Assembly: GCA_946481475.1 (NCBI GenBank)
Contig: CAMLOB010000131.1
Span: 1-8,830, forward strand
Origin: an uncultured Chlorobiota bacterium
Lineage (GTDB): Bacteria; Bacteroidota; Kapaibacteriia; OLB7
Reading direction: 5' to 3'
Length of the DNA: 8,830 nucleotides
Part shown: piece after piece, positions 2 to 8,830 of the stretch
Layout of the letters: every line of letters starts with the position of its first letter
How positions within the stretch are numbered: the first letter of the stretch is position 1
Notes under the pieces: generated by a model
What the model was told of the DNA's origin: nothing
The model's database searches: none
Seen by the model: only the letters and a program-made list of their open reading frames with translations
Position numbers and translations under genes: made by a program

Positions 2-703
2 TACCTGACGTTCAATCAGTTCTTCGCCCGCCACGTCAAGCCGGGCATGCGTCCGGTGGCCGGACTCTGCGACAACAGCAGCATCGTCTCTCCGGCCGAC
101 TCCACGTTCGTCGGCTGGTGGCAGGTCAGCGAGAAGTCGAAGATCTATGTGGAGGAGAAGAAGCTGGACATCAAGGGGATTCAGTGGTCGATCCATGAGT
201 TGCTGCAGGGGAGCGAATATGCCGACCGCTTTGAGGGGGGAATCTTCACCCACAGCTTCCTGAACACATTCGACTACCATCGCTGGCACACGCCGGTGCA
301 GGGGAAGGTGCTGGAAGCGGACGTGATTCAGGGACAGGCCTGGCTGGACGTGAACGTAAAGCCGGCAATCGTCAACGGAAAGGAAGTGAACGTCCTGAAC
401 GCCCTCGACGGCACCGGCTACCAGTTCGTGCAGACGCGGGGACTTGTGGTGATCGACTCGCCGATCGGACTTGTCGCCTGCCTTCCGATGGGGATGGCCC
501 AGGTCTCCTCAGTGGTCATCACCGCCGAGGTCGGCAAGACGCTCCGCAAGGGGGAGGAACTCGGCTACTTCCAGTTCGGCGGCTCCGACTTCGTAATGGT
601 CTTCGAACGAGCAAGCAACGTTCAGTTGATCAATCAGCCGAACGTCCACTACAACCAGGGGACCTGGATCGGCACTGCCTTTCCCTACGGGAAGAATTTC
701 TGA
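2..703 (+). CDS. Phosphatidylserine decarboxylase family protein (3' part, start outside window)
   Basis: This enzyme family makes phosphatidylethanolamine from phosphatidylserine at the membrane, using a pyruvoyl group formed by self-cleavage. The frame is open from base 2, so the N-terminus lies upstream and 233 codons are visible. The visible start reads LTFNQFFARHVKPGMRPV, the family's 'TFNEFFxRxLKPGxRP' region. It is followed by IVSPADS (Asp codon 98-100) and DYHRWHTP (His codons 278-280 and 287-289), matching the Asp and His residues needed for self-processing. The cleavage motif near the C-terminus is FGGSD, with the future pyruvoyl Ser at 584-586. It differs from the bacterial LGST form and resembles the GGS form of Psd2-type enzymes. 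About 39 residues follow the cut and would form the small alpha chain. A phospholipase-like gene follows on the same strand. The family call is secure; the substrate could be a different phospholipid or amino-acid headgroup. Confidence 0.9.
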   Translation, partial: YLTFNQFFARHVKPGMRPVAGLCDNSSIVSPADSTFVGWWQVSEKSKIYVEEKKLDIKGIQWSIHELLQGSEYADRFEGGIFTHSFLNTFDYHRWHTPVQGKVLEADVIQGQAWLDVNVKPAIVNGKEVNVLNALDGTGYQFVQTRGLVVIDSPIGLVACLPMGMAQVSSVVITAEVGKTLRKGEELGYFQFGGSDFVMVFERASNVQLINQPNVHYNQGTWIGTAFPYGKNF

Positions 704-1924: not shown

Positions 1925-4537
1925 TCAAACCGAGACATTTTCTTCCATCTCACCAATCCTCTCTCCTCTCCGTTCCAACTTCTCCCCCGCCATCTCCACC
2001 ACCACCACCGTCACGTCATCGTTCTGCTCGGCCTCTCCACGGAATTCGGTGATCTCACGGAGCAATTGGTCGTTCAGTTCTTCCGGCGTCGCTTCGGCGG
2101 CCCGGGCAAGAGCGGCATAAAGGCGTTCCTCTCCGAACTCCTCGCGCCGTTCGTTCATCGCCTCGGAGAGTCCGTCGCTGTAGAGGATGAACCGGTCGCC
2201 GGGGAGATAATCCAGCGTAATCTCTTCGAGACAGGAAGAGAAAAGATCGAGCGAGCGGACGCCGAGGGGGAGTCCTTTCGGTGCAAACGATTCGATACCG
2301 GTCTTCCGCTGGCGGATCAGCCGCATGTGTCCGGCCCGGGCAAGCTGCAGGGTGCCGTCGTTCAGGTCGATCAGCATGATCGACGCGGTGATGAAGATGC
2401 CGCTCTCGATCACCGCGCAGAGTTGTTCGTTCAGCATCCCGAGCATTTCGCGGGGTGACAGGCGGATCGAGGAGACGATGCGGACCATGCCGTGAAGTTC
2501 CGCCATGTAGAGTGAGGCGGGAAGGCCTTTGCCGGAGACGTCGGCGATCATCACCAGCAACCGGTTGTGAGGAAGGGGAATCACCTCGTAGTAGTCACCG
2601 CCGACCGCCATCGCCGGACGGGAAACGGCCGCCATGGCGACGCCCGGTATCTCCGGCATATCCGACGGAAGCAGACTCTGCTGGATGCGCCGGGCGGTTG
2701 CAAGTTCTTCCTCGTATCGCCGCCGCTCGATCTCCCGCTCGTAGAGTCGGGCCGCCTCGATGCCTGAGGCCCCCTGCGAGGCGACGCTGTTGACGAAGGA
2801 GATCTGACTCCCGCTGATCGGCTTTCCGTCGGAACGCTTCCCCATCAGGATCGCGCCGATCAGTCTTCCCCCGGCATAGAGTCCGATCGCGTAGGTGAAC
2901 CCGGCGTCGACGATCGAGCGAAGCTCCGGTTGCTGCACGGCGTTCAATCGGGTCAGTTCGTGCGATGAGCGGAGAATATCCTGCAACCGCTTCACCCCCG
3001 CCTCATCAAATGCGACGGTATCGCCGCACACTTCCCTGACGATCTCCAGCCGTTCTCCGCCGTCAACCACCGATACGCAGATCTTCTCCAGCGCAAGGTG
3101 CTCGCTCAACGTCCCGGCGATCAGTCCGGCCACCTGCGGCACACCGATCGCCTCGGTGATCCGCGCGCCGTATTCGGCCAGATGCTCGGAGTAGTCGCGG
3201 TACTGCGGAAAGAACCGACGGTCGACCAGTCGCTGAACGAAACGGCGGATCGGTTCGAAGGCAAGAAGGAACAGGACCAGAATGGCGATCTCCACCACCT
3301 TCTCCATCTGCGTCCCGAGAAGCGAACCGAGCTGCTGTCCGATCCCGAGAGCAAGCGTGATGTAGAGTCCGACAATCGCACCGGTCGTCAGCGTGTAGAC
3401 GAGCGTCGTCTTCACCACCGCCCGGACGTCCATCAACTGATAGCGGAAGATCGCATAGCCGTAGCTGAGGGGAAGGGCTACGAAGAGGGCGGCCGGGATG
3501 ACGATCAACTGTTGCCAGATGCCGCTCACCTGTGACTGCACCATGCCGATCACCCCGAAGTAGAGGAGAACGCAGGCCGTTATCATCGTCCCGACCAGAA
3601 TTGCCCGCATCGGTCGCCGGTCGCTCTGCGGCGGCATCTTGCCGTATCCCCTGAAGAGAAGCCAGATACCGAAACCGAAGTAGAGTCCGCAAAGGATCTT
3701 CAGGATAAAGATGGAGGGCGAAATCAGCGATGCGAACCGCTCAACCGGAATGAACGAGCCGATCATTCCTTCCACACCAAGAAACCCGACGAAGGCGACC
3801 GCAGCCGGAGCCAGTATCAGACCGAAGAGAATCAGCTTCCGACGTCGTCTCTCCAGAAAATCCTGTCTGACCGGGAAGGATACGCAGAAGAAGACCCACG
3901 CCAGGAAATAGATCGTCCCGCCGACCAGCCAGACTATCGTCCACCCGCTTGTGGCCATCTTCCCGGCCGGACCGGAGAAGGCGAAGAGGACGGTCAGTCC
4001 GGTCAGAAAGAAAAACTTCTGGACATATCCGTCCGGCCGGGTCAGTCCGACTATGAGACCGATCAGAAGCCAGAGCGTGGCGAAGACCGCGTAGATGACC
4101 GGGATCAGGGGGAACGATCCCATTTCCGAGAGCTGCAACTGCAACTCGATCCGCCGTCCGTCCCGTTCCACCACATAGGAAATCGGTCGGTCGGTCGGCG
4201 CATTGTTCAGAAGGGACTGGGCGTACCAGAGGATCTGCTCGTTGTCGGCCGGAGGTATCGTGCCGCCGTTGATCTCCAGAACGCGATCCCCCACCTGCAC
4301 CCCCGCCTCCTCGGCACTCCCCCCCGGAACCAGTTGCGTCACGATCAGGACGTTTTCTCCTCCCCGCTTCGCAATCCCCCACAGACAGTTGTCCGTGTTG
4401 ATGCTGCTGACGAAGAGGGCGTTGGTCCAGACGGCAATCAGCGTCAGCATGGCACAAGCGGAAAGGGTGTAGAGAACCCTGAGAAGAGAGGTCTTCGAGA
4501 GAAGACGCGGCGACTGTTCGACGAACGTTGAGACCAT
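1925..4537 (-). CDS. Membrane PDZ-GAF-SpoIIE (PP2C-type) serine phosphatase
   Basis: The 870-residue product is a membrane-bound regulatory phosphatase of the RsbU/SpoIIE type, which usually dephosphorylates STAS anti-sigma-antagonist proteins. Visible layout: a membrane segment near 20-44; a PDZ-like domain about 60-135 (PGGSAEEAGVQVGDRVLEIN); a block of about eight hydrophobic segments between 143 and 430, including FRYQLMDVRAVVKTTLVY, a linker common in multi-TM sensor proteins; a GAF-like domain about 455-595; a charged helical linker ending in ARRIQQSLLP (615-624); and the phosphatase domain about 625-850. Metal-binding Asp residues are present in GGDYYE (648), IADVSGKG (666), LYSDGL (788) and NDDVT (840-841). 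The start at 4537 is chosen because it places the first membrane segment correctly and leaves the divergent promoter region free. A frame-open extension to 4771 would translate repeat sequence. The SD is weak. No partner STAS or kinase gene is in the window. Confidence 0.88.
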   Translation of the reverse strand: MVSTFVEQSPRLLSKTSLLRVLYTLSACAMLTLIAVWTNALFVSSINTDNCLWGIAKRGGENVLIVTQLVPGGSAEEAGVQVGDRVLEINGGTIPPADNEQILWYAQSLLNNAPTDRPISYVVERDGRRIELQLQLSEMGSFPLIPVIYAVFATLWLLIGLIVGLTRPDGYVQKFFFLTGLTVLFAFSGPAGKMATSGWTIVWLVGGTIYFLAWVFFCVSFPVRQDFLERRRRKLILFGLILAPAAVAFVGFLGVEGMIGSFIPVERFASLISPSIFILKILCGLYFGFGIWLLFRGYGKMPPQSDRRPMRAILVGTMITACVLLYFGVIGMVQSQVSGIWQQLIVIPAALFVALPLSYGYAIFRYQLMDVRAVVKTTLVYTLTTGAIVGLYITLALGIGQQLGSLLGTQMEKVVEIAILVLFLLAFEPIRRFVQRLVDRRFFPQYRDYSEHLAEYGARITEAIGVPQVAGLIAGTLSEHLALEKICVSVVDGGERLEIVREVCGDTVAFDEAGVKRLQDILRSSHELTRLNAVQQPELRSIVDAGFTYAIGLYAGGRLIGAILMGKRSDGKPISGSQISFVNSVASQGASGIEAARLYEREIERRRYEEELATARRIQQSLLPSDMPEIPGVAMAAVSRPAMAVGGDYYEVIPLPHNRLLVMIADVSGKGLPASLYMAELHGMVRIVSSIRLSPREMLGMLNEQLCAVIESGIFITASIMLIDLNDGTLQLARAGHMRLIRQRKTGIESFAPKGLPLGVRSLDLFSSCLEEITLDYLPGDRFILYSDGLSEAMNERREEFGEERLYAALARAAEATPEELNDQLLREITEFRGEAEQNDDVTVVVVEMAGEKLERRGERIGEMEENVSV

Positions 4538-4569
4538 AGTCAGTCGGAAAGAGTATTCGGGAACGGCTT

Positions 4570-4577
4570 CAAATATA
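4570..4577 (-). promoter_or_regulatory. Possible -10 element for the phosphatase gene
   Basis: On the minus strand these bases read TATATTTG, about 33 bases upstream of the ATG at 4537, in an AT-rich patch of otherwise GC-rich DNA. It resembles a sigma-70 -10 box and also fits the TAnnTTTG form used by Bacteroidota-type sigma factors. No good -35 (or -33 TTTG) element is seen at the right distance, so this is only a candidate. Confidence 0.25.
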
Positions 4578-4593
4578 GGAAAGCCCCATTCCT

Positions 4594-4632
4594 TTCTTTG
4601 TGCTTCTTTGTGCCCTTCGAGACTTTGCGGTT
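4594..4632. repeat. Intergenic TTCTTTGTGC tandem repeat
   Basis: Two exact copies of the 10-mer ttctttgtgc (4594-4603 and 4604-4613) are followed by two decayed units up to about 4632 (ccttcgagac, tttgcggttc). The element sits in the 267-base gap between two divergent genes (4538-4804), where no gene is evident. Both neighbouring reading frames run open through it, which makes false N-terminal extensions. From memory, similar words recur between genes in many metagenome-derived genomes; I could not check this. Confidence 0.5.
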
Positions 4633-4794
4633 CCTCTTCTTCAGAACGGATTTCACCACCAACGCTATCCGCTACGGCAAGGAGACCAGGGTCCGCGAAG
4701 ATTTTTCCGTTACACCCGTTTCCCCCCGCGTCGTTCCGCTCGTACGGACAGATCGCGTCCGGAATCATCAACAGTCATTCATCACACATCACAT

Positions 4795-4804: not shown

Positions 4805-7105
4805 ATGTCTCGCCTTACTACTCCTCTGCGCTCTTTTCTGATTCCGGCCCTCACGCTCCTCGTCGGCGCGTGTACGGGCGACCGGAAAGAGACCGCCGAA
4901 TCGACCCCGTCAACAACCGAAAGCCCGGCAGGAGATGATCTTTCGGGCACAAACCCGAACCCGATCGTTGCCGCCGGCGTTACCGATGGAAGTGGTCTCC
5001 TCGCTCCACTCACTGCGGCCGATCCGCCCCTTGATGCGGCAGATTGGGTTTCAATCGGAGCTGAAGTCGTGGATGGAGAGACCACCACGTATAACCCGCC
5101 CACACCCTGGAATGTACCGTTGACATGGTCTACCGAAGCATCGAAAGAGGCGATTGCACAGGAACTGCGTCGGGGATATATCAGTAATGCCGCCAACTCC
5201 AACTACAACATCCGTGGGGGCCGGGCAAATGAGACGTCCGGTACGGTTCAGCAGGTCGGTGCCGGTGCGGTAGGAGCCGATCCGATTCTGAACGAAGTAA
5301 TCCTTGCGGAGGACATCGCTACGGGTGCGATGACCACTGATGAGATTCTGAACCAGACCATCACCAGCGAGGATATTCAGGACGGACAGGTCATGACGGT
5401 TGACATCGCCAATCTGGCGGTAACCAACCGGAAGCTCAGTCCGAACGCCGTCACCACGGACAAGATTCGGGACGGCGAGGTGATGAATCCGGATCTGGCG
5501 ACCGAATCGGTGACAACTCTACCGAGCACTTCCCCCGTCCCCGGCAATCGGAACAATCCCTGGTTGTCGCTTCTGAGCGAGGGACTCGGCAACGTGATGT
5601 ACGACTCCATCGGGGTCAACAACAGGGATCGGAACGAACAACAGATTCAGGAGGTCGTCTCCCAACCCGAACCGCCCCGCAAGCCGTCGCACGAAAATCA
5701 TTTTCGTCTGACCTCCGGCAGTCCCTACTCCACCTTCTCGATCGACGTGGACAACGCCGGCTACTCGAACGTCCGGGGCTACCTCACCCGGGGACAGCTC
5801 CCCCCGCCGGATGAAGTCCGGATCGAGGAACTGGTCAACTACTTCAAGTACGATTACCCCGAACCGACCGACGGCTCCCCCTTCGCCTTCAACTCGGAGA
5901 CGACGGTCTGTCCCTGGAACCGGGACCACCTTCTCGTCCGCCTCGCCCTTCAGGGACGTGAACTGCAGAAGCAGCAGGCCCAGTCATCGAATCTCGTCTT
6001 CCTGATCGACGTCTCCGGCTCGATGAGCGACGCCGACAAACTCCCGCTGCTGAAGGAATCCCTGAAGAAGCTCATCAACGAACTTCGTCCGGAAGACCGC
6101 GTGGCCATCGTCGTCTACGCCGGTGCGGCCGGTCTCGTCCTGGAATCGACCTCCGACAAAGGGAAGATCCGGGGAGCAATCGACCGACTCAGCTCCGGAG
6201 GCTCGACCGCCGGAGGGGCCGGTATCGAACTTGCCTACAAGACCGCACGGAAGAACTTCATGCCGGACGGGGTCAACCGGGTGATCCTTGCGACCGACGG
6301 CGACTTCAACGTCGGCGTCTCAAGCGAGGACGGACTGGTGAAGCTGATCGAGGAGAAGCGGAAGGACGGCATCTTTCTGAGCGTCCTCGGCTTCGGCACG
6401 GGGAATTATCAGGACAAGAAGATGGAGCAACTGGCCGATCACGGCAACGGCAACTACTACTACATCGACCGGCTTCAGGAGGGAGAGCGGGTACTGGTCG
6501 ATGAGATGAGCGGAACGCTCTACGCCATTGCAAAGGATGTGAAGCTCCAGTTGAAATTCAACCCCGAAAAGGTGGCCGCCTACCGGTTGATCGGTTACGA
6601 GAACCGGGTCCTGGCCGCCCGCGACTTCGACGACGACACGAAAGATGCAGGCGAACTCGGCGCCGGACATCAGGTAACCGCCCTCTACGAGGTGGTGCCG
6701 GTCGGTGCGGTAATCGGATACGAACCGGACACGACCGCCGGAGAGGACTACAAACTGGAGGATGAACTCCCCGATCTCTTCACCACGAACGACCTCCTCC
6801 TGGCCCGCCTCCGCTACAAGGAACCGACCGACAGCGTCAGCAAACTGATCCAGCATCTGGTGCGGGACGAACGGAAGGAACTGGAGAAAGCCGGTGAGTC
6901 GACCCGGTTCGCTGCGGCGGTTGCCGGATGGGGGATGCTGCTGCGGGGTTCGGACTATCGGGGGAGGATCAGCTATGACGATGTGGTAACGTGGGGGAAG
7001 GGTGCGAGTGGATCGGATGGCGACGGCTACCGCCGTGAGTTTATCGGGCTTGTCGAGAAGTCGAAGATCTATGCACAGGGGAATGCATTGTCCGACACGA
7101 GATAG
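4805..7105 (+). CDS. yfbK: YfbK-like von Willebrand factor A lipoprotein with decapeptide-repeat insert
   Basis: The 766-residue product is a predicted envelope lipoprotein. Residues 1-22 form a signal peptide ending in the lipobox LVGAC, with Cys23 lipidated. A Ser/Thr/Pro-rich stretch and a region of no recognised fold follow. Residues 161-240 are eight decapeptide repeats. From about 297 the protein follows the YfbK family: an N-terminal domain (FSIDVDNAGYSNVRGYL, VRIEELVNYFKYDY); a vWA domain about 395-575 with a complete MIDAS metal site (DVSGSMS 402-408, Thr468 in GGSTAGG, Asp498 in ATDGD); and the YfbK C-terminal domain (FAAAVAGWGMLLRG, GYRREFIGLV). E. coli YfbK, about 575 residues, has no such insert, so most of the extra length is N-terminal. 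The molecular role of the family is unclear; metal-dependent adhesion or complex assembly is typical of vWA domains. The gene is divergent from the phosphatase and has its own terminator. Confidence 0.9.
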   Translation: MSRLTTPLRSFLIPALTLLVGACTGDRKETAESTPSTTESPAGDDLSGTNPNPIVAAGVTDGSGLLAPLTAADPPLDAADWVSIGAEVVDGETTTYNPPTPWNVPLTWSTEASKEAIAQELRRGYISNAANSNYNIRGGRANETSGTVQQVGAGAVGADPILNEVILAEDIATGAMTTDEILNQTITSEDIQDGQVMTVDIANLAVTNRKLSPNAVTTDKIRDGEVMNPDLATESVTTLPSTSPVPGNRNNPWLSLLSEGLGNVMYDSIGVNNRDRNEQQIQEVVSQPEPPRKPSHENHFRLTSGSPYSTFSIDVDNAGYSNVRGYLTRGQLPPPDEVRIEELVNYFKYDYPEPTDGSPFAFNSETTVCPWNRDHLLVRLALQGRELQKQQAQSSNLVFLIDVSGSMSDADKLPLLKESLKKLINELRPEDRVAIVVYAGAAGLVLESTSDKGKIRGAIDRLSSGGSTAGGAGIELAYKTARKNFMPDGVNRVILATDGDFNVGVSSEDGLVKLIEEKRKDGIFLSVLGFGTGNYQDKKMEQLADHGNGNYYYIDRLQEGERVLVDEMSGTLYAIAKDVKLQLKFNPEKVAAYRLIGYENRVLAARDFDDDTKDAGELGAGHQVTALYEVVPVGAVIGYEPDTTAGEDYKLEDELPDLFTTNDLLLARLRYKEPTDSVSKLIQHLVRDERKELEKAGESTRFAAAVAGWGMLLRGSDYRGRISYDDVVTWGKGASGSDGDGYRREFIGLVEKSKIYAQGNALSDTR
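5285..5524 (+). repeat. Eight in-register decapeptide-coding repeats inside the YfbK-like gene
   Basis: Codons 161-240 encode eight consecutive 10-residue units without any spacing error. The consensus is roughly (I/L)xxxx(V/I/M)(T/L/M)xx(D/E/K), for example IATGAMTTDE (171-180) and LSPNAVTTDK (211-220). DNA identity between units is low, so the repeats are old or selected at the protein level. The pattern resembles the 'ADGAVTTAKI' repeats of phage tail-fibre and bacterial surface proteins, which form elongated, often trimeric beta structures. That likeness is from pattern recognition alone. Confidence 0.75.
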
Positions 7106-7254: not shown

Positions 7255-7296
7255 CAGTCCCGATTCTTGACTCCCGACTCTCGACTCCTGACTCCT
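7255..7296. repeat. Heptanucleotide tandem repeat (GACTCCC type)
   Basis: Six 7-base units lie in register: cagtccc (7255), gattctt (7262), gactccc (7269), gactctc (7276), gactcct (7283) and gactcct (7290). The last two are identical. The tract lies about 63 bases before the aldehyde dehydrogenase start. Like the 781-815 tract it has a 7-base period, but the unit sequence is unrelated. Confidence 0.7.
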
Positions 7297-7358: not shown

Positions 7359-8830
7359 ATGAACGACCAGCTTCTTCAATCCGATATACTCAATCCGCAG
7401 GCGGCCGTCCGGGACTACCGGCTCTTCATCGACGGAGCCTTCGTCGATTCGGTCTCCGGCAACACGTTCGACGACGTCAGTCCGGTGACCGGGCGGGTGA
7501 TCGCCCGCGTGGCCGAGGCAAACGCAGACGATGTGGACCGGGCGGTGGCGGCCGCAAAGCGGGCACGCCACGGCGAGTGGGCGAAGATGGGGACGAACGC
7601 CCGACTCGATCTCCTCTCCCGCGTCGCCGACAGAATCATGGAACGGTTCGATGAATTTCTCAAAGCCGAAATCGCCGACACCGGCAAACCGGTCTCCTGG
7701 GCAAAGGCGATCGACATCCCGCGCGGCGCGGCAAACTTCCGGCTCTTCGCGAACATGGTCCGGAACGTCCCGAACGAGTCATACCAGACCGACACGGAGG
7801 ACGGACTCGGCGCGCTCAACTATGCGATCCGCGTTCCGCTCGGCGTCGTCGGCGTGATCTGTCCCTGGAACCTTCCCCTGCTGCTGATGACCTGGAAGGT
7901 CGCCCCGGCTCTGGCCTGCGGGAACACGGTGGTGGTGAAACCGTCGGAGGAGACGCCCGGCACCGCAACGCTGTTGGGGGAGGTAATGAACGAGGTCGGC
8001 ATCCCCTCCGGCGTCTACAACGTCGTCCACGGGTTCGGTCCCGGATCGGCCGGCGAGGCATTGACGAAGCATCCGGACGTTGCGGCGATCACCTTCACCG
8101 GCGAGACCCGGACCGGCTCGGCCATCATGAAAGCGGTTGCCGACGGAGTGAAGCCGGTCAGCTTCTTCGCCGATGCGGATTTCGACGCCGCCGTCGCCGG
8201 GGTGGCCCGCTCCACCTTCGCCAATTGCGGTCAGGTCTGCCTCTGTTCCGAGCGGGTCTACGTGGAGCGTTCGATCTTCGACCGTTTCGTCGAGGGACTG
8301 GCCGACCGGGCCGGGAAGCTCCGGATGGGAGATCCGTTCCTGCAAGCGACCACGATGGGACCGCTGATCTCGAAGGGACATCGGGAGAAAGTTCTCGGCT
8401 ACTACGATCTGGCCCGGGAAGAGGGGGCGACGGTCGTGACCGGCGGGGGCGTCCCGGAACTCGGCGATCCGTTCGACGGCGGTTCGTTCGTGGAGCCGAC
8501 GATCCTGACCGGGCTGCCGGAGACGGCCCGCGTCATCAGGGAAGAAATCTTCGGTCCGGTCTGCCACATCCAGCCCTTCGATGATGAAGATGAGGCGTTG
8601 GCGATGGCGAACGACACCGACTACGGCCTCTGCTCCGCCCTCTGGACGCAGAACCTCTCCCGCGCCCACCGGCTTGCCGCGCAGATCGACGTCGGGATCA
8701 CCTGGGTCAACAGTTGGTTCCTCCGCGACCTGCGAACGCCTTTCGGCGGGACCGGAATCAGCGGCATCGGACGCGAGGGGGGGATTCACTCGGTGAACTT
8801 CTATAGTGAGTTGAGGAATATCTGTGTGAA
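7359..8830 (+). CDS. Aldehyde dehydrogenase, hydroxymuconic-semialdehyde type, lacking ELGGK (3' end outside window)
   Basis: The 490 visible codons cover almost a whole NAD-dependent aldehyde dehydrogenase; only the last residues are cut off. Present are PWNLP (Asn171), VVVKPSEE (Lys194), TFTGETRTG (246-254), the catalytic Cys294 in NCGQVCLC, EEIFGPV (cofactor Glu396) and TPFGGTGISGIGREGG. The GETRTG word and the ending VNFYSELRNICV fit the 2-hydroxymuconic/aminomuconic semialdehyde dehydrogenase branch, which acts in aromatic-ring cleavage, though the substrate cannot be set from this. The odd point is KPVSFFADADFDAA (266-279): the family normally has about ten more residues here, containing ELGGK with the general-base Glu (268 in human ALDH2). 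Frame is kept. The ATG at 7359 has a weak SD. The enzyme is therefore either altered or inactive as hydrolase, or the gap is a sequence error. Confidence 0.9.
   Translation, partial: MNDQLLQSDILNPQAAVRDYRLFIDGAFVDSVSGNTFDDVSPVTGRVIARVAEANADDVDRAVAAAKRARHGEWAKMGTNARLDLLSRVADRIMERFDEFLKAEIADTGKPVSWAKAIDIPRGAANFRLFANMVRNVPNESYQTDTEDGLGALNYAIRVPLGVVGVICPWNLPLLLMTWKVAPALACGNTVVVKPSEETPGTATLLGEVMNEVGIPSGVYNVVHGFGPGSAGEALTKHPDVAAITFTGETRTGSAIMKAVADGVKPVSFFADADFDAAVAGVARSTFANCGQVCLCSERVYVERSIFDRFVEGLADRAGKLRMGDPFLQATTMGPLISKGHREKVLGYYDLAREEGATVVTGGGVPELGDPFDGGSFVEPTILTGLPETARVIREEIFGPVCHIQPFDDEDEALAMANDTDYGLCSALWTQNLSRAHRLAAQIDVGITWVNSWFLRDLRTPFGGTGISGIGREGGIHSVNFYSELRNICV

What the first reader, a model, noticed from the sequence alone, without database searches (positions are those of the whole stretch)
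8151..8183. Aldehyde dehydrogenase has lost the ELGGK general-base segment in frame
The translation reads KPVSFFADADFDAA, where family members read roughly KPVS-x-ELGGKNP-x-x-V-FADAD. About ten codons (30 bases) are absent between Ser268 and Ala271. The Asn, Lys, Cys and cofactor Glu motifs are all intact, and the rest of the gene is clean. The missing Glu activates the water that hydrolyses the thioester, and the missing strand sits next to the catalytic Cys. A real deletion would give a dead, CoA-acylating or otherwise repurposed enzyme. The doubled ttc ttc at the junction also fits a clean deletion or an assembly collapse.
Basis: partly seen in the sequence, partly recalled or inferred. Interest (0 to 1): 0.72.

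Follow-up and report, generated by a model that had tools for sequence, protein, structure and literature searches.

The report
Dehydrogenase copy missing catalytic segment
An ordinary bacterial aldehyde dehydrogenase gene lacks, in this sequence record, ten codons that hold its catalytic glutamate; it looks like a recent breakage or an assembly slip, not a new kind of enzyme.

Summary
The gene at 7359-8830 (+) is a 2-hydroxymuconic/2-aminomuconic semialdehyde dehydrogenase (TIGR03216, 803.6 bits, cut-off 693.25). It reads SF|FADAD where relatives read SF-ELGGKNPAII-FADAD or nearly so: 10 codons are absent between bases 8165 and 8166. A repurposed or CoA-acylating enzyme finds no support. The 222 distinct homologues listed by two searches all carry the segment, with a constant 34-residue step from Glu to catalytic Cys. 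So do the 115 genomic loci examined, and a 90%-identical Ignavibacteriae protein. Of 221 columns conserved at 95% or more, 7 fall in the gap and the window protein departs at 0 of the other 214, so the loss is recent or a record error. AlphaFold confidence is much lower than for the intact relative (pTM 0.57 against 0.88). In a solved family member, changing this Glu alone to Ala left no detectable steady-state activity (PMC4286809, passages). The product is most likely misfolded and inactive. The window appears to be a whole contig that ends two codons before the expected stop. No reads are held, so a true null allele and an assembly error cannot be told apart.

The parts
7359..8830 (+). 2-hydroxymuconic / 2-aminomuconic 6-semialdehyde dehydrogenase gene, 490 codons present; runs off the end of the window, where relatives have two more codons (KL) and a stop
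   Evidence: TIGR03216 803.6 bits vs cut-off 693.25; PF00171; P0001 90% identity; the genes of five related genomes end ...KL before the stop
8163..8168 (+). junction TTC|TTC (Phe269-Phe270); 30 bases present in every relative examined are absent between 8165 and 8166
   Evidence: alignment of 120 homologues; 222 proteins; 115 loci
8238..8240 (+). codon of the catalytic Cys294 (NCGQVC), intact
   Evidence: invariant column in A1; Cys302 is the nucleophile in PMC4286809 (passages)
7869..7871 (+). codon of Asn171 (PWNLP), intact
   Evidence: invariant column in A1; oxyanion-hole role recalled

Best explanation
This is an ordinary 2-hydroxymuconic/2-aminomuconic semialdehyde dehydrogenase gene of a bacterium near the Ignavibacteria/Kapabacteria (group inferred from the nearest named hits). 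In this record it has a single, recent, in-frame 30-base loss. The loss removes the general-base Glu, the LGGK turn and the strand that follows (275-279 in the P0001 model). The encoded protein would not hydrolyse the thioester and probably does not fold into the normal two-domain enzyme. It is a null allele or a sequence-record error, not an evolved variant. Shown: the gap, its absence from every relative examined, the conservation of the rest, and the lower model confidence. Inferred: loss of function, recency, and the DNA-level origin, which stays open between a strain-level deletion and an assembly error, at about even odds.
For: The gap is absent from 120 of 120 listed homologues, 222 of 222 distinct listed proteins and 115 of 115 loci. 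The 90%-identical P0001 is intact. At the 95% level the window protein departs at 0 of 214 ungapped conserved columns, against a mean of 1.5 of 221 for the 120 homologues. AlphaFold gives mean pLDDT 77.2 and pTM 0.57, with residues 248-271, 293-295 and 455-474 below 50, against 89.0 and 0.88 and no stretch of three or more below 50 for P0001; strand 275-279 of P0001 is missing from the window model. E268A in the solved AMSDH had no detectable steady-state activity (PMC4286809, passages).
Against: The loss is exactly in frame and leaves the frame open to the end of the window, which a random deletion does only one time in three and which would also fit a tolerated variant. No expression or activity data exist. 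AlphaFold is not calibrated for deletions, the alignments were shallow (43 and 42 rows), and no control deletion was modelled. Most of the window model is still confident (351 of 490 residues at pLDDT 70 or more). Conservation of the rest dates the loss only loosely, because most substitutions would have accumulated before it.
Confidence: 0.88

Rival explanations
1. Sub-case of the best explanation: the 30 bases exist in the organism and were lost by the assembler or gap-filler, for example where the strongly conserved ELGGKNPAIIFADAD coding stretch is shared by several strains in the sample.
For: The loss lies in one of the most conserved stretches of the gene (E, L, G, G, K, N invariant in A2). 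The window seems to be a short whole contig: the protein database gives 8830 as the longest contig of the window's own VWA protein. It ends 665 bases after the junction and two codons short of the stop. The rest of the gene shows no decay.
Against: No long repeat is present at the junction; the flanks share about 2 bases. The neighbouring VWA protein has no gap at 463 alignment columns occupied in 95% or more of 119 homologues, and the frame is kept.
Confidence: 0.45
2. Sub-case of the best explanation: a true, recent 30-base deletion in a strain, giving a null allele.
For: Clean junction, frame kept, roughly 2 bases of shared sequence at the ends as in simple replication slippage or end joining; no other gap found in the gene or at the 463 columns checked in the VWA protein.
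Against: No second record with the junction was found: 0 of the 342 proteins fetched hold VSFF or SFFAD. No reads are held.
Confidence: 0.43
3. A repurposed enzyme, such as a CoA-acylating, esterase-like or non-catalytic binding protein, in which loss of the general base was selected.
For: Frame, Cys, Asn and Lys positions are all kept, as are Arg residues near the places of the substrate arginines.
Against: No relative examined shares it. TIGR01722 (CoA-acylating) is far below its cut-off. A point change would suffice to lose the Glu, whereas this loss takes out a strand and lowers model confidence.
Confidence: 0.03
4. The missing residues are supplied by another Glu nearby, or by recoding.
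For: None found.
Against: All 222 listed relatives have the Glu at the fixed 34-residue step from Cys. In the window no Glu lies between the junction and Cys294 (sequence). Recoding cannot restore bases that are not in the DNA.
Confidence: 0.01

Closest known systems
2-hydroxymuconic semialdehyde dehydrogenase, NCBIfam TIGR03216
   Same: Full-length match above the curated cut-off (803.6 vs 693.25 bits); 0 departures at 214 ungapped columns conserved at 95% or more among 120 homologues
   Different: Lacks the 10-residue segment with the general-base Glu
2-aminomuconate 6-semialdehyde dehydrogenase, solved structures 7bzv, 4u3w, 4i1w and the E268A mutant 4oe2
   Same: Best PDB matches by sequence (7bzv 661.7 bits); R122 in DIPRG and R456/R459 in LRDLRT lie near the substrate arginines Arg120 and Arg464 of that enzyme (correspondence judged by eye)
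   Different: In the two alignments printed (7bzv, 4u3w) the chain has 10 extra residues exactly at the junction; E268A keeps the whole fold (PMC4286809 passages), whereas the window model loses confidence
CoA-acylating methylmalonate semialdehyde dehydrogenase, TIGR01722
   Same: Same superfamily
   Different: Below cut-off (245.8 vs 448.5 bits). That such enzymes lack the general-base Glu but keep the strand is recalled, not checked
ALDH16 pseudoenzyme
   Same: A non-catalytic ALDH superfamily member exists as precedent (PMC8160307, passage)
   Different: ALDH16 lacks the Cys; here the Cys stays and the Glu segment is gone, in this record alone among those examined

Membership tests
TIGR03216 2-hydroxymuconic semialdehyde dehydrogenase | score above the curated cut-off over the whole model | tested here: met
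   803.6 bits vs 693.25, profile 2-479 of 481
TIGR03216 2-hydroxymuconic semialdehyde dehydrogenase | general-base Glu in E-L/M-GGKN | tested here: not met
   absent; so it is a family gene by descent, not shown to be a working member
TIGR03216 2-hydroxymuconic semialdehyde dehydrogenase | catalytic Cys and oxyanion-hole Asn | tested here: met
   C294 and N171 invariant in A1
TIGR03216 2-hydroxymuconic semialdehyde dehydrogenase | NAD-dependent oxidation of the semialdehyde | not testable with these tools
   needs an enzyme assay
TIGR01722 CoA-acylating MMSDH | score above the curated cut-off | tested here: not met
   245.8 bits vs 448.5

The most novel reading that the evidence does not exclude
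A natural ALDH that has lost its general base together with a core strand, yet still folds and keeps a partial function: a stable thiohemiacetal or acyl trap, or a dominant-negative subunit in mixed tetramers.
Probability: 0.02. Interest if true: 0.55.

Novelty: new member of a known kind. Interest (0 to 1): 0.13.

Why it matters
Mainly as a caution: a conserved catalytic motif missing in frame from one contig, with the rest of the gene in good order, points to a recent null allele or a consensus error rather than a new chemistry. If reads confirm the deletion, it is a natural loss-of-function allele of an enzyme of aromatic-ring or tryptophan breakdown.

Tried and rejected
Own genome: none held. 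Viral contigs: one stretch matched a pattern, none encoded a relative. Same gap in relatives: looked for with the whole protein, with a 46-residue query centred on the junction, in genome contigs (521 relatives, best 80 kept), and among 391 genomes of the class of G001, of which 147 had a match at E <= 1e-100; only the 30 best places of that search were given loci and examined. One search searched what proved to be the same class (391 genomes, same tally) and added nothing. Relatives of G005: 7 of 61 matched at E <= 1e-150.

CoA-acylating reading: rejected on TIGR01722 and on the lack of any lineage with the gap. Decay along the gene: not seen, 0 departures at 214 ungapped columns of the 95% set, where the mean of the 120 homologues is 1.5 of 221; at the 90% set (257 columns, 10 of them gapped) there is 1 departure, T282V, which P0001 shares. 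Assembly quality elsewhere: the neighbouring VWA protein (766 aa) has no gap at the 463 columns occupied in at least 95% of 119 homologues; its more variable part, and the other genes of the window, were not checked in this way.

Papers: one search listed one paper, PMC4286809, of which passages were read. Searches combining ALDH with in-frame deletion and catalytic glutamate and with MMSDH, Glu268 and CoA-dependent returned no paper; one search listed 8 of 15, of which passages of PMC8160307 were read.

Full report
What is there. The reading frame 7359-8828 on the + strand is open for 490 codons and runs off the end of the window. It matches NCBIfam TIGR03216, 2-hydroxymuconic semialdehyde dehydrogenase, with 803.6 bits against a cut-off of 693.25, and Pfam PF00171. 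The closest protein found is P0001, 90% identical, 502 aa, named by its source as a 2-hydroxymuconic semialdehyde dehydrogenase of an Ignavibacteriae MAG. In the five related genomes whose matching gene was read out (G001, G002, G005, G016, G035), the protein ends two residues (KL) after the point where the window stops, so the window lacks only two codons and the stop. The protein database lists the window's own VWA protein (100% identity) with 8830 as its longest contig, in a cluster of 2 sequences on 2 contigs, which indicates that the window is a whole contig.

The observation. Relatives read SF-ELGGKNPAII-FADAD or nearly so; the window reads SF-FADAD. The alignment places a gap of exactly 10 residues between Phe269 (8163-8165) and Phe270 (8166-8168), and nothing else is missing except the two end residues. 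None of the 120 homologues listed shares the gap. In 115 of 115 loci the best-matching gene has E-x-GGK at the site. These are 80 loci and 35; the 35 include a second fetch of the genes of L001 and L002, and more distant ALDHs down to about 35% identity. The counts cover the best-listed hits only (120 of 8000 scored, 120 of 1235), and the database is clustered at 90% identity.

Is it old or recent? Of the 221 alignment columns conserved at 95% or more among the 120 homologues, 7 fall in the gap and the window protein departs at 0 of the other 214; the homologues depart 1.5 times on average, and P0001 once (position 300). At the 90% level (257 columns) the window departs once, T282V, which P0001 shares. 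Of the 39 ungapped differences between the window and P0001, 38 lie outside the 95% columns and one, position 300, lies in such a column, where P0001 is the one that departs. A rough figure computed for 39 random changes all missing the 214 columns, about 1e-10, overstates the case slightly for that reason. The gene was thus under normal constraint for most of its separation from P0001. The loss is recent, or it is not in the organism at all. This dating is loose.

What it does to the protein. AlphaFold2 models with nearly the same alignment (43 and 42 rows) give mean pLDDT 77.2 and pTM 0.57 for the window protein against 89.0 and 0.88 for P0001. The window model has residues 248-271, 293-295 (beside the Cys) and 455-474 below 50, while P0001 has no such stretch, and the strand at 275-279 of P0001 is missing. 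No control deletion was modelled, and 351 of 490 residues of the window model still have pLDDT 70 or more, so this is indicative only. In the crystal-studied 2-aminomuconate 6-semialdehyde dehydrogenase, the best PDB match by sequence, changing this Glu alone to Ala left no detectable steady-state activity although the fold was unchanged, with r.m.s.d. 0.139 A (PMC4286809, passages). A review gives the same residue its role in activating water for the thiol and for thioester hydrolysis (PMC8160307, passages). Losing the Glu, the LGGK turn and a strand together should be worse than E268A. This last step is inference.

Why not repurposed. The protein falls far below the cut-off of the CoA-acylating model TIGR01722 (245.8 against 448.5 bits). 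No lineage examined shares the gap. No Glu lies between the junction and Cys294 that could replace the lost one (sequence).

Allele or artefact. For an artefact: a short contig that ends inside the gene, 665 bases after the junction, and a site in one of the most conserved stretches of the gene, where sequences from several strains could be confused. For a true deletion: a clean in-frame junction, no long repeat there (the flanks share about two bases, TC, judged from the codons of L081 and L082), and no gap in the neighbouring VWA protein at the 463 columns checked. Without reads this stays at about even odds.

Surroundings. Upstream lie a phosphatidylserine decarboxylase (cut at the window start), a PI-PLC-like protein, a SpoIIE-type phosphatase with a PDZ domain on the opposite strand, and a YfbK-like VWA protein. 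They do not look like one pathway with the dehydrogenase (inference). In the closest held genome, G005, the dehydrogenase is present and intact, but in the 19 kb around it the only other nucleotide match to the window is a short decarboxylase remnant just upstream.

Verdict. This is an ordinary enzyme gene with a one-off loss, most likely inactive, of low interest.

Noticed in passing
L116:11252-11410 (minus strand), with window 2-703: In G005, directly upstream of the intact dehydrogenase gene, lies a stretch matching only the last ~55 residues of a phosphatidylserine decarboxylase (44% identity to the window's decarboxylase); it looks like a remnant or a fusion tail.
   Followed up: partly
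window 4805-7105: VWA/YfbK-type protein whose N-terminal part has repeat-like stretches (ITSEDIQDGQV, AVTTDKIRDGEV; seen by eye) before the VWA domain; many listed homologues match only about 60% of its length.
   Followed up: no
window 7258-7296: Short imperfect tandem repeat (GACTCC-like units, periods 7 and 14) in the gap before the dehydrogenase gene; a similar short repeat (TCGCAAA) lies at 781-797, also between genes.
   Followed up: no
window 1925-4771, minus strand: SpoIIE-type phosphatase with an N-terminal PDZ domain; the stretch between them looks hydrophobic by eye. Nearly full-length relatives of 42-46% identity lie in 4 of 5 related genomes, but only partial matches in G005.
   Followed up: partly
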